Positions 16,637 through 20,709 of a stretch of DNA of 35,174 bases are shown in pieces (position 1 is the stretch's first letter; every line of letters begins with the position of its first letter). The notes under the pieces are model-generated. The model had not been told where the DNA came from. It did no database searches and worked only from the letters and a program-made list of their open reading frames with translations. Location: assembly GCA_012517255.1 (NCBI GenBank), contig JAAYVH010000265.1:1-35174 (forward strand). The letters run 5' to 3'. The position numbers were made by a program, and so were the translations under genes. The DNA comes from Chthonomonadales bacterium (GTDB lineage Bacteria > Armatimonadota > Chthonomonadetes > Chthonomonadales > CAJBBX01).

Positions 16637-17665
16637 TCATTCGTCCTCGATGTCTTCCTCGTCGGCGTCGCTGTCCTTCGAGGGCGACGACGTGCCGCTG
16701 CCCCGCAGCGCCAGACCGCGCATCTCGAGCTTCGCCTTCACCTCATCCAGGGACTTCTTGCCGAAGTTCTTCAGGTGCATCAGGTCGGCTTCGGTGGCCT
16801 GGATCAGCTCGCCGAGCGTCAGGATGTTGGCCTTCTTCAGGCAGTTGGACGTTCGCACCGAGAAGTCCATCTCCTCAATGCGCTCGTCGCCGGCCTGGCG
16901 CGTCAACGGCCCTTCCGGCAGCAGCAGATCGTCCGTTTCGGCGAACTCCTCTGCGCCCGCCAACTCCATGAAGTGGCGGAAATACCGGTCGAGGATCATG
17001 GCGGCACGGCTGATCGCGAGGCTCGGCTTCAGACTGCCGTTCGTCGTGATCTGCAGCACAAGGCGCTCGAAGTCGGTCTTGAACCCGACGCGTCGGGGCT
17101 CGACCGTGTAGTTCACCTTCCTGACCGGCGTGAACGCCGATCCCACCGGGATCACGCCGATCGGCTGGCCCGGCCGCTGTTCCTGTTTGTCGGGAAGGAC
17201 ATAGCCCTTGCCGACCTCGACCACCATCTCCATGGAAAGCGTGGCGTTCTCGTCATCAATCGTCGCGATGTAGCACTCCTGATTGATGACGCTGACCCCC
17301 GGCGGGCATTCGACATCCGCGCCGGTCACGCGGCCGGCGCCTGTCCGCTCGATGCGGATGGTTTGCGGCTCGGGCTGGCCGCCGCCGACTGCTTCCATCT
17401 TCACGTTCAGGTTCTTCAGATTGAGCAGCAGCTCCGTCGTGTCTTCTTTAAGTCCCGGGATCTCCGAGAACTCATGCAGCACGCCTTCGATCTTCACCGA
17501 GGTGATGGCGGCCCCCTCGATAGACGACAGCATGACGCGGCGCAGGGAGTTCCCCAGCGTCACGCCATAGCCGCGTTCGAGAGGCTCGACGACAAACGTG
17601 CCGTAACTCTCCGTCTCCTCCAGCTTCTCTATGCGTGGCAATGCGATTTCCATCGGCAACCTCAA
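16637..17665 (-). CDS. rpoA: DNA-directed RNA polymerase subunit alpha
   Basis: FVVEPLERGYGVTLGNSLRRVMLSSIEGAAITSVKIEGVLHEFS; alpha-CTD NCLKKANILTLGELIQATEADLMHLKNFGKKSLDEV. Start may be the ATG at 17653. Confidence 0.98.
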   Translation of the reverse strand: MRLPMEIALPRIEKLEETESYGTFVVEPLERGYGVTLGNSLRRVMLSSIEGAAITSVKIEGVLHEFSEIPGLKEDTTELLLNLKNLNVKMEAVGGGQPEPQTIRIERTGAGRVTGADVECPPGVSVINQECYIATIDDENATLSMEMVVEVGKGYVLPDKQEQRPGQPIGVIPVGSAFTPVRKVNYTVEPRRVGFKTDFERLVLQITTNGSLKPSLAISRAAMILDRYFRHFMELAGAEEFAETDDLLLPEGPLTRQAGDERIEEMDFSVRTSNCLKKANILTLGELIQATEADLMHLKNFGKKSLDEVKAKLEMRGLALRGSGTSSPSKDSDADEEDIEDE

Positions 17666-17750
17666 CTTCCGCGATCACATGGCGCGGGCAGGTTGGCTGA
17701 GCCGCATGGCTCCGATTCCATCGGAACCGGCGCCATGCCCAGCCTGCGTG

Positions 17751-18386
17751 CTAGCGCGAGTAGAACTCGACAATCAGCTGCTCTTGCACTTCGGTGTCTA
17801 TCATGCGGCGCTCGGGCTCCTGCAGAATCCGACCCGTCATCTCGTTGTGATTGAACTCGAGCCACTCCGGCAATCCGCGCGTGTGCAGCTTCTCACGCAC
17901 GGCTTTGATGATGGCGGTGCCGTTCTTCGACTCATGCACGCCCACCACGTCGCCGGGGCGCACCTGATACGACGGGATGTTCACCCTGCGGCCGTTCACC
18001 GTGAAGAACCGATGGCTCACAAGCTGACGCGCCTGGGAGCGCGAGACGGCCAGTCCGAGGCGGTAGACCACGTTGTCAAGGCGCATCTCGAGCTGCTGCA
18101 GGAGGTTCTCGCCAGTGACGCCGCGACGGCGCATGGCTTCATCCATGTAGCGCCTGAACTGCCCCTCGATGATCCCGTAGATCCTCCGCAGCTTCTGCTT
18201 CTCGCGCAACTGGGTGCCGTATTCCGTAACCTTGCGGCGCATCACCGAGTCGCCGTGCATTCCCGGCGGCTTGGCCCGCTTCTCGTTGTTCATGGGGCAC
18301 TTCTGCGTGCAGCGGTCGCCCTTCAGGAACAGCTTCTGTCCCTCACGCCGGCACAACCGACACCGGGGGTACGAGGATGTTGCCAT
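17751..18386 (-). CDS. rpsD: 30S ribosomal protein S4 (zinc-motif type)
   Basis: CRLCRREGQKLFLKGDRCTQKCPMN; RRIYGIIEGQFRRYMDEAMRRRGVTGENLLQQLEMRLDNVVYRLG. Confidence 0.97.
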   Translation of the reverse strand: MATSSYPRCRLCRREGQKLFLKGDRCTQKCPMNNEKRAKPPGMHGDSVMRRKVTEYGTQLREKQKLRRIYGIIEGQFRRYMDEAMRRRGVTGENLLQQLEMRLDNVVYRLGLAVSRSQARQLVSHRFFTVNGRRVNIPSYQVRPGDVVGVHESKNGTAIIKAVREKLHTRGLPEWLEFNHNEMTGRILQEPERRMIDTEVQEQLIVEFYSR

Positions 18387-18415
18387 GCTCTGATTGATTC
18401 TCCTTCTGGTCTTTG

Positions 18416-18483
18416 CCAGTCAGCGATCCATACGGACTGGGAGTTTACGTCCCGATCGCTCGGGATTTCATCCTCCCGCGATC
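18416..18483 (-). promoter_or_regulatory. Candidate structured rpsD leader with mutually exclusive stems
   Basis: Minus-strand RNA GATCGCGGGAGGATGAAATCCCGAGCGATCGGGA: stem A is GATCGCGGGA pairing with TCCC(GA)GCGATC; stem B is TCCCGA-GCGA-TCGGGA (GNRA loop). A further CCAGTC/GACTGG hairpin lies closer to the rpsD start. Confidence 0.5.
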
Positions 18484-18502
18484 AGTCTCGCGCGTCCCAG
18501 AC

Positions 18503-18907
18503 CTAGACGCGCCTACGCTTGGGCGGTCGGCATCCGTTGTGCGGGATCGGAGTCACGTCCCGGATCAGCATCACCTCAAGGCCGATGGCCTGCAGCGATC
18601 GGATGGCCGTCTCGCGGCCCGACCCCGGCCCCTTCACATACACCTCCACACGTCGCAGACCGTGTTCCATGGCCTTGCGAGCCGCGCTCTCCGCAGCCAT
18701 CTGGGCAGCGAAGGGCGTGCTCTTCTTGGCGCCCTTGAACCCGATTCCGCCGGCGCTGGCCCAGGATATGGCATCGCCCCGCATGTCGGTGATGGTGATG
18801 AGCGTGTTGTTGAACGTGGACTTGATGTGCACCACGCCCTGCACGATGTTCTTCTTCTCTTTGGGCTTCTGCCTCGTCGAGGCGCCGCCCGTCTTCTTGT
18901 TCGCCAT
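18503..18907 (-). CDS. rpsK: 30S ribosomal protein S11
   Basis: [49 protein letters not shown]-terminus [18 protein letters not shown]. Confidence 0.98.
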
Positions 18908-18955
18908 GCAAACTCCCTCAGCGCAGCGCCATGCTGCGCGTGCCCCGTTGACTGC

Positions 18956-19333
18956 CTACTTCTTGGCGCGCTTCTTGCCGGCGATCGTCCGCTTGGGTCC
19001 CTTGCGAACTCGCGCGTTCGTCTTCGTGCGCTGGCCGCGGACGGGCAGACTGCGGCGGTGCCTCAGGCCCCGGTAGCAGCCGATCTCGACCAGTCGGCGG
19101 ATGTTGAGCGAGATCTCGCGGCGCAGGTCGCCCTCGACACGATAGTCGCGCTCGATCAGTTCGCGCAGCTTGCTGCTTTCCGACTCGGTCAGATCGCGCA
19201 CGCGCGTCGCAGGATCAATGCCCGCAGCCGCCACGATCTTCCTGGCGCTGGACAGCCCGATCCCGTAAATGTACGGCAAGGCGTACTCTATGCGCTTGTC
19301 ACGCGGCAGATCAACGCCCGCTATTCTAGCCAA
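18956..19333 (-). CDS. rpsM: 30S ribosomal protein S13
   Basis: [33 protein letters not shown]...[32 protein letters not shown]. Confidence 0.98.
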
Positions 19334-19414
19334 TACCGTCCTCCATCGAGTGTGCCATGGGCCGGGTCTCCGGCCGCGATGCTCGTCCCATCCGCGCAGC
19401 GGCGGCGCAGGCGG

Positions 19415-19528
19415 TCATCCCTGCCGCTGCTTGTGCTTCGGGTTCTTGCAGATGACCCGCACGACTCCCTCGAGCTTGATCACCTTGCACTTGTCGCATA
19501 TCTTCTTTACAGATGCCCTGACTTTCAT
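19415..19528 (-). CDS. rpmJ: 50S ribosomal protein L36 (zinc-binding type)
   Basis: Translated by hand: [37 protein letters not shown]. Not listed in the supplied ORF track because of its small size. Confidence 0.95.
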
Positions 19529-19587
19529 GATGCCCCCATGAGCGCGCCTCAGACGGGCGGTTCCCGAACCGTCCCGGCCGCTCGATT

Positions 19588-19920
19588 CTACTTGTACCGA
19601 TAGGTGATCCGGCCCCGCATCAGATCATACGGCGACAGCTCCACAAGAACGCGATCGCCGGGCAGAATGCGGATGAAGTGCATCCGGATCTTGCCGGAGA
19701 CGTGGGCGGTCACCTCGTGTCCGTTCTGAAGCTGGACCCTGAACGTGGCGTTCGGCAGGTTCTCCAGAACGACGCCCTCCGTCTCGATCCCCTGTTCCTT
19801 CCCGTCCTCTGAGGTGTCCTGAGCCCGAGGGGTCCTCGCCTCCTGAGCCGGGCGCGCCGCTCGATTGGCCCCGCGTCGGCGACCCGAACCCCCCGTCTTG
19901 TATGTGCGTTTTGGTGGCAT
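19588..19920 (-). CDS. infA: Translation initiation factor IF-1 with a basic N-terminal extension of roughly 40 aa
   Basis: [66 protein letters not shown] is canonical IF1. Preceded by [44 protein letters not shown], with GGAGG 5 nt before the ATG. Confidence 0.95.
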
Positions 19921-20709
19921 TCAGTCCTCCTGCGTCAAGATCAGCGCACCGTTCCGCGTCACCGCAACTGTGTGCTCGAAGTGCGCCGACATTGAGCGAT
20001 CGCGCGTCACGATCGTCCACGAGTCCTTCAGCACCTCTATCTGCCTGCTGCCCATATTCACCATCGGCTCGATGGCGAGGGTTGTCCCCTCGATCAGCAA
20101 CGGCCCCGTGCCCCGCTTTCCGTGGTTCGGCACCTGCGGGGCCTCATGCAGATACCGTCCCACTCCGTGCCCGACCATCTCGCGCACCACGCTAAACCCG
20201 TGCTTGCGCACGTGCCGCTCGATGGCAGCGCCGATATCACCAACACGGTTGCCGGCCCTTGCCTGGGCGATGCCCTCGAAGAGAGCCTCCTCAGTTACGG
20301 CCAGCAGTTTCTCGGTCTCGGGCGCTATGCGCCCTACCGGGAAGGTCCGAGCGCTGTCGGCGTAGTACCCGTCCAGCCTGACCCCCACGTCGCACCCAAC
20401 GACATCGCCCTCATACAGCACGCGCTTTCCCGGGATACCGTGGATCACTTCCTCGTTCACCGAGATGCACGTCCACGCAGGGTAGGGCGGATGTCCGTCC
20501 GGAGCGTAGCCCACAAACGCCGATGTCGCCCCATTCGAGGTAATGGCTTGCTCAGCCGCACGCTCCAGATCCATCGTCGTGGTGACGCCGGGGACGATCG
20601 CGTCGCGCATGGCGGCCAGCGTGTAGGCAACCACGCGGCCTGCTGCCCGCATCTTTTCGATCTCCTCCGGTGTCTTCGGCAGTATCCTTCCCTCGGGATA
20701 TGCACCCAC
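19921..20709 (-). CDS. map: Methionine aminopeptidase, type I
   Basis: IEKMRAAGRVVAYTLAAMRDAIVPGVTTTMDLE, GDVVGCDVGVRLDGYYADSARTFPVG, GHGVGRYLHEAPQVPN, TLAIEPMVNMG. Confidence 0.96.
   Translation of the reverse strand: MGAYPEGRILPKTPEEIEKMRAAGRVVAYTLAAMRDAIVPGVTTTMDLERAAEQAITSNGATSAFVGYAPDGHPPYPAWTCISVNEEVIHGIPGKRVLYEGDVVGCDVGVRLDGYYADSARTFPVGRIAPETEKLLAVTEEALFEGIAQARAGNRVGDIGAAIERHVRKHGFSVVREMVGHGVGRYLHEAPQVPNHGKRGTGPLLIEGTTLAIEPMVNMGSRQIEVLKDSWTIVTRDRSMSAHFEHTVAVTRNGALILTQED

What the first reader, a model, noticed from the sequence alone, without database searches (positions are those of the whole stretch)
18416..18483. Candidate riboregulatory leader upstream of rpsD with mutually exclusive hairpins
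Seen on the minus-strand RNA: 5'-GAUCGCGGGAGGAUGAAAUCCCGAGCGAUCGGGA. UCCCGA can pair with downstream UCGGGA (GCGA GNRA tetraloop) or UCCC(GA)GCGAUC can pair with upstream GAUCGCGGGA. A further CCAGUC/GACUGG stem lies nearer the rpsD start. This 116-nt gap is the largest in the alpha-operon part. Established: S4 autoregulates by binding structured mRNA leaders in several bacteria. Inference: an S4-binding or antitermination switch not matching a leader I recognise.
Basis: partly seen in the sequence, partly recalled or inferred. Interest (0 to 1): 0.6.

Follow-up and report, generated by a model that had tools for sequence, protein, structure and literature searches.

The report
rpsD leader copying a rRNA helix
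The stretch of messenger RNA just before the gene for ribosomal protein S4 in this Armatimonadota bacterium folds into a conserved structure that copies the piece of ribosomal RNA which S4 normally grips, so surplus S4 probably binds its own message and shuts off its own production; it is a new version of a known kind of feedback control.

Summary
The 116-nt rpsK-rpsD gap carries a real, conserved structured RNA (window 18396-18484, minus strand). In 26 of the 30 genomes of the order (Chthonomonadales, Armatimonadota) where rpsD was found, the same element lies directly upstream of rpsD: P1 (GGGAG/CUCCC), an internal loop GANGAA/GUAAA, hairpin P2, hairpin P3, and P4, whose 3' strand holds the Shine-Dalgarno AAG. 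P1, P2 and P4 covary strongly. A covariance model built only from leaders finds each leader and, as its next-best hits across the phylum, mostly 16S rRNA helix 16, in the 5' domain that nucleates S4 binding. The internal-loop strands are close to verbatim copies (16S GGAGGACGAAG...GUAAACUCC). No Rfam family matches, including the known S4 leaders. Best reading: an S4-binding translational operator that mimics helix 16. The proposed alternating switch is not: the alternative helix folds about as well in this species but is absent in relatives. The CCAGUC/GACUGG stem is inconclusive at best and energetically poor. In two other Armatimonadota families, rpsD is preceded by the same loop with its strands in swapped order (a circular permutation), running over the Shine-Dalgarno. 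S4 binding and repression are untested.

The parts
18396..18484 (-). Conserved leader element (whole covariance-model match)
   Evidence: R1 62.4 bits; the only window match; next best in own genome 17.4 bits
18473..18477 (-). P1 5' strand GGGAG, pairs with 18439-18443
   Evidence: 97% of cells paired in 20 leaders; U-A to A-U flip in 8, G-C to A-U in 1
18467..18472 (-). Internal loop 5' strand GAUGAA (GANGAA/GANGAC in relatives), copy of 16S helix 16
   Evidence: alignment A1; same letters in 16S of family members
18450..18465 (-). P2 hairpin UCCCGA-GCGA-UCGGGA
   Evidence: 4 of 5 pairs with changes on both sides across relatives; loop sequence and length vary
18444..18448 (-). Internal loop 3' strand GUAAA, copy of 16S helix 16 (E. 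coli nt 428-432)
   Evidence: invariant in 20 leaders; E. coli numbering
18439..18443 (-). P1 3' strand CUCCC
18427..18436 (-). P3 hairpin UCC-GUAU-GGA (short here; variable in relatives)
   Evidence: position conserved, length and sequence variable; no separate covariation count made
18416..18423 (-). P4 5' strand CUGACUGG (CUUNCYGG in most family relatives, CUUNGUGG or CUUNGCGG in the sister family)
   Evidence: 89% of cells paired; CG/GC and UA/CG exchanges; found by RNAalifold unaided
18403..18409 (-). P4 3' strand CCAGAAG, includes the first bases of the Shine-Dalgarno
18400..18405 (-). Shine-Dalgarno AAGGAG of rpsD, partly paired in P4
   Evidence: sequence; GGAG invariant in 20 leaders
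18481..18483 (-). P0 5' strand GAU (AAUGC/GGUGC in relatives), would close the junction
   Evidence: 80% of cells paired, two pairs with double changes; weak in this species
18396..18398 (-). P0 3' strand AUC (GCAUU/GCAUC in relatives)
17751..18386 (-). rpsD, ribosomal protein S4, the gene directly downstream and presumed target
   Evidence: ORF; 275 of 291 Armatimonadota genomes have a match
18503..18907 (-). rpsK, upstream neighbour in the operon
   Evidence: ORF

Best explanation
The element is an S4 (uS4) autoregulatory leader, inside the alpha operon immediately before rpsD. P1, the GANGAA/GUAAA internal loop and P2 reproduce 16S rRNA helix 16 of the S4 binding region. When S4 exceeds free 16S rRNA it binds the mimic, holds the P1/P2-P3-P4 junction together and keeps the Shine-Dalgarno of rpsD in or beside P4, lowering translation of rpsD (perhaps also of rpoA and rplQ by coupling). 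Shown here: conservation, covariation, exact placement, rRNA mimicry, partial pairing of the Shine-Dalgarno. Inferred: S4 as ligand, repression, and the translational rather than transcriptional step.
For: Leader upstream of rpsD in 26 of 30 order members with rpsD located. Covariation: 87.7% of cells paired against 77.1 in shuffles, 54 doubly changed cells against 21.9, score 0.338 against 0.167 (0/500), slid controls 0.05-0.09. RNAalifold finds P1, P2 and P4 unaided. The loop signature is in 26/26 leaders and 11/10400 shuffles. Leader-only model R1 has 16S rRNA as its main second class of hits: 16 of 20 fetched weaker-hit regions are 16S by BLAST, at helix 16 where mapped. Family 16S reads GGAGGACGAAG..GUAAACUCC; GUAAAC aligns to E. 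coli nt 428. S4 nucleates on the 5'-domain five-way junction (PMC10931766, PMC5591316); that helix 16 belongs to this junction and touches S4 is established knowledge, not tested here. GUAA mimicry is known in Firmicutes S4 leaders (PMC7247131). Two further Armatimonadota families carry the same two strands before rpsD in permuted order.
Against: No binding or expression data. P4 pairs only AAG of AAGGAG, GGAG stays largely free in the model, and P4 is imperfect in a few members (L004; the window itself has CUG instead of CUU). The closing helix P0 is weak in this species. Two order members (G015, G018) have short spacers and no leader, and the f2 family has a different spacer. In this species the free RNA may spend about half its time in the non-conserved fold (P1 probability 0.54).
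Confidence: 0.85

Rival explanations
1. A two-state switch: GAUCGCGGGA/UCCC..GCGAUC (or CCAGUC/GACUGG) is the ligand-free, ON conformation that competes with P1/P2.
For: In the window the alternative fold is as stable as the conserved one (-40.1 against -39.5 kcal/mol). CCAGUC/GACUGG shows some excess pairing over the whole set (75.8% against 70.0%).
Against: The first alternative is at chance level in relatives. The second is driven largely by invariant CC/GG that P1 and P4 already explain, by differences between the two families and by partners unpaired in 6-9 of 20 rows; it is not above shuffles within the family and costs about 2-19 kcal/mol. Conserved P1 dominates the ensemble in most relatives.
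Confidence: 0.07
2. The element regulates by transcription attenuation or antitermination rather than by hiding the ribosome binding site.
For: S4 is reported as a transcription factor with NusA-like properties in rRNA antitermination (reference listed in PMC10931766).
Against: No terminator-like site on the minus strand of 17500-20000; the conserved element runs straight into the Shine-Dalgarno, whose first bases are part of P4.
Confidence: 0.08
3. The ligand is another ribosomal protein (S11, S13) or a small molecule, and the helix-16 likeness is incidental.
For: Other ribosomal proteins are encoded in the same operon.
Against: The element sits directly before rpsD and the leader-only model retrieves 16S helix 16 from whole genomes.
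Confidence: 0.05
4. A degenerate or non-functional copy of a 16S fragment, or spacer conservation without regulation.
For: Strong sequence likeness to 16S.
Against: The sister family changes P1 to GGGUG/CACCC by compensatory change while a 16S from that family keeps GGAG/CUCC (L142), so the stem evolves independently and only the loop is held; P4 around the Shine-Dalgarno has no clear helix-16 counterpart and also covaries.
Confidence: 0.02

Closest known systems
Firmicutes S4 leader (Bacillus subtilis rpsD)
   Same: cis element before rpsD, S4 ligand, a conserved GUAA reported to imitate 16S rRNA (PMC7247131)
   Different: No sequence of it was available here to align. Here the element lies inside the alpha operon, and both strands of the loop plus the flanking stem match helix 16
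Fusobacteriales S4 leader (Eckert and Weinberg 2020)
   Same: GUAA mimicry, alpha operon genes, S4 as likely ligand (PMC7247131)
   Different: its listed genes begin with rpsM, so it lies at the head of the operon rather than before rpsD; no Rfam match at E up to 10
S4-Clostridia RF03140, S4 Bacteroidia and Flavobacteria leaders
   Same: predicted S4 leaders of the same operon
   Different: reported without clear rRNA mimicry (PMC7247131); no Rfam match here
E. coli alpha operon leader
   Same: S4 autoregulation of the alpha operon at the level of translation
   Different: pseudoknot at rpsM that does not mimic rRNA (PMC7247131, PMC10931766)
16S rRNA helix 16
   Same: P1, GANGAA/GUAAA loop, P2; retrieved by the leader-only model
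   Different: P3 and P4 with the Shine-Dalgarno have no clear counterpart; P1 pairs differ in the sister family

Membership tests
Ribosomal-protein leader (r-leader) in general | Structured RNA with covariation in the region upstream of ribosomal protein genes | tested here: met
Ribosomal-protein leader (r-leader) in general | Consistent position before the same ribosomal protein gene across genomes | tested here: met
   26 of 26 strong hits directly before rpsD
Ribosomal-protein leader (r-leader) in general | Product of a downstream gene binds it and represses | not testable with these tools
   needs binding and reporter assays
rRNA-mimicking S4 leader | Resemblance to the S4 binding region of 16S rRNA | tested here: met
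   helix 16 retrieved by leader-only model; loop identical
Rfam S4 leader families (e.g. RF03140 S4-Clostridia) and Alpha_RBS | Covariance-model score at or above gathering threshold | tested here: not met
   no match at gathering for the window, and no S4 leader among matches up to E 10 for the window stretch and 16 relatives
Firmicutes rpsD leader | Same secondary structure as the B. subtilis leader | not tested
   no B. subtilis leader sequence at hand
Transcription attenuator | Intrinsic terminator overlapping the leader | tested here: not met
   no minus-strand terminator-like site

The most novel reading that the evidence does not exclude
Within one phylum, S4 operators built from the same rRNA helix exist in two strand orders: the helix-16 order in Chthonomonadales, with the Shine-Dalgarno in a separate helix, and a circularly permuted order (GUAAAC-hairpin-GANGAAGA) in at least two other families, where the GANGAAG strand itself overlaps the Shine-Dalgarno or the start codon. 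This would mean rRNA mimicry by S4 leaders arose or was rewired more than once around a minimal recognition loop.
Probability: 0.6. Interest if true: 0.7.

Novelty: new variant of a known kind. Interest (0 to 1): 0.55.

Why it matters
It adds an S4 feedback leader from a poorly studied phylum (none for Armatimonadota turned up in Rfam or in the papers searched) and gives an unusually clear case of messenger RNA copying ribosomal RNA: both strands of the helix-16 loop, found blindly by a model trained on leaders only. Together with the permuted versions it narrows what S4 may recognise in helix 16 to a small loop that can be tested directly, and it offers a natural experiment on how rRNA mimics evolve.

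Tried and rejected
Rfam at gathering and at E up to 10: only chance matches. CCAGUC/GACUGG: inconclusive over all, unsupported within the family. Terminator and promoter scan: nothing on the minus strand. 16S of the window's own genome: not found in the assembly, so 16S of family members was used. Model R2 of the permuted form is too weak for genome-wide use: 3 hits in 291 genomes, all training members. Literature searches found no Armatimonadota S4 leader, but only open-licence papers are held.

Full report
Observation. On the minus strand rpsK ends at 18503 and rpsD begins with ATG at 18386, with 116 nt between; this is the largest gap from infA to rplQ. Alone, the spacer is only modestly more stable than shuffled sequence (z -1.9). 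Rfam gives no match at gathering for the window, and only chance matches at E up to 10 for the window stretch and sixteen relatives. Rfam holds the recently described S4 leaders (PMC7779021 reports adding the new r-leaders and names S4-Clostridia RF03140).

Relatives. Names of records that match a leader pattern place the genome in Armatimonadota, order Chthonomonadales. rpsD was located in 30 of 31 order members. Reading the spacers showed a common element in families f1 (the window's) and f3, although spacer length varies from 104 to 225 nt. Twenty leaders aligned well with MAFFT (A1). The structure is P1 GGGAG/CUCCC, an internal loop GANGAA facing GUAAA, a P2 hairpin of variable length, a variable P3 hairpin, P4 (CUUNCYGG/CCRGAAG in f1, mostly CUUNGUGG/CCACAAG in f3) and a closing P0 (AAUGC/GCAUU, GGUGC/GCAUC). 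The 3' strand of P4 runs into the Shine-Dalgarno AAGGAG.

Covariation. For 22 pairs, 87.7% of cells are paired against 77.1% in shuffles, doubly changed cells are 54 against 21.9, and the covariation score is 0.338 against 0.167, with 0 of 500 shuffles reaching it. Partners slid by 1-3 columns give 0.05-0.09. RNAalifold, given no structure, returns P1, P2 and P4. The shuffle control does not remove relatedness, but the slid control keeps it, and exchanges between the two families occur in both P1 and P4.

The proposed switch. GAUCGCGGGA/UCCC..GCGAUC is paired in 39.7% of cells against 36.6% in shuffles, within the range of slid controls. CCAGUC/GACUGG reaches 75.8% against 70.0% over both families, but two of its six pairs are nearly invariant C-G pairs already required by P1 and P4. 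Within f1 it does not exceed shuffles, and it costs about 2-19 kcal/mol relative to P1+P4. In the window itself the first alternative is as stable as the conserved fold (-40.1 against -39.5), and P1 probability is only 0.54, but P1 dominates in most relatives. I read this as a peculiarity of one species.

What it copies. The 16S rRNA of family members reads GGAGGACGAAG-UCCUUCGGGAU-GUAAACUCC at helix 16; GUAAAC aligns to E. coli nt 428. The leader reads GGAGGACGAAG-P2-GUAAACUCC in several f1 genomes. The signature GGANGA...GUAAAC is present in 26 of 26 leaders and in 11 of 10,400 dinucleotide shuffles; the leaders were collected by that signature, but every spacer with a leader was then found again by the model. 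Independently, the covariance model R1, trained on leaders only, gives one strong hit in each of 26 order members, always before rpsD (49-80 bits; the window scores 62.4, next in its genome 17.4). Outside the order its best hits are weak (up to 32 bits). I fetched 20 regions of weaker hits, from inside and outside the order: 16 are 16S rRNA by BLAST, and the printed alignments put helix 16 on P1, loop and P2. In the f3 family the leader uses GGGUG/CACCC while an f3 16S (L142) uses GGAG/CUCC, so the stem has drifted and the loop has been kept, as expected of a protein-binding mimic. S4 recognises the five-way junction of the 16S 5' domain (PMC5591316, PMC10931766); that helix 16 is one of its arms and contacts S4 is established knowledge I did not test. 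Firmicutes and Fusobacteriales S4 leaders share a GUAA reported as rRNA mimicry (PMC7247131).

A permuted relative. In the f15 and f5 families of the same phylum, 12 of 12 examined rpsD genes are preceded by GUAAAC-[hairpin]-GANGAAGA (one member, L150, deviates slightly in the pairing next to the loop), ending 4-7 nt before the start codon or overlapping it. The two strands of the helix-16 loop appear in reverse order, closed on the P1 side. The short outer helix covaries (CUC/GAG, UUC/GAA, AUC/GAU): 96.7% of cells paired against 84.0%, score 0.497 against 0.231, 0 of 500 shuffles; one slid control reaches 0.314. These families were noticed because they contain GUAAAC, so the 12 of 12 is not an unbiased rate, and the alignment was trimmed by hand to the motif. 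A different S4 operator built on the same loop is the simplest reading; I give it 0.6.

Mechanism. Shown: conservation, covariation, placement, mimicry, partial pairing of the Shine-Dalgarno. Inferred: S4 binds, stabilises the junction and lowers rpsD translation. Transcription attenuation is less likely because no terminator-like site lies on this strand. Two order members lack the leader (28-30 nt spacers) and the f2 family has another conserved spacer, so the element is lineage-restricted, as is usual for such leaders.

Verdict. The S4 interpretation is well supported as a prediction; the switch is not. It is a new architecture of a known kind of regulator. Limits: E-values from R1 are rough, draft metagenome assemblies dominate the set, and the literature library holds only open-licence papers.

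Noticed in passing
L059, L143, L061, L144-L150 (family f15) and L060, L062 (family f5), directly upstream of rpsD: Circularly permuted helix-16 mimic GUAAAC-hairpin-GANGAAG(A) just before or overlapping the rpsD start codon, with covarying outer helix.
   Followed up: partly
L089, 2536-2627 minus (CANPVY010000172.1): Exact match to the leader pattern, with a longer P1, lies between tRNA-Gly and tRNA-Pro genes of an unrelated bacterium, without rpsD nearby; about 0.1 such matches would be expected by chance by my estimate.
   Followed up: partly
L011 and L049 (family f2, same order): 174-176 nt rpsK-rpsD spacers conserved with each other but unlike the leader described here; possibly another S4 leader.
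   Followed up: no
L021 (G015) and L029 (G018): Two members of family f3 have only 28-30 nt between rpsK and rpsD and no leader; apparent loss.
   Followed up: no
L057 and L065: Upstream of rpsD in two other families, long spacers contain repeated copies of a CCCCUGAYC-type unit.
   Followed up: no
window genome G000: No 16S rRNA found in the assembly although it is rated 100% complete, as is common in metagenome bins.
   Followed up: no
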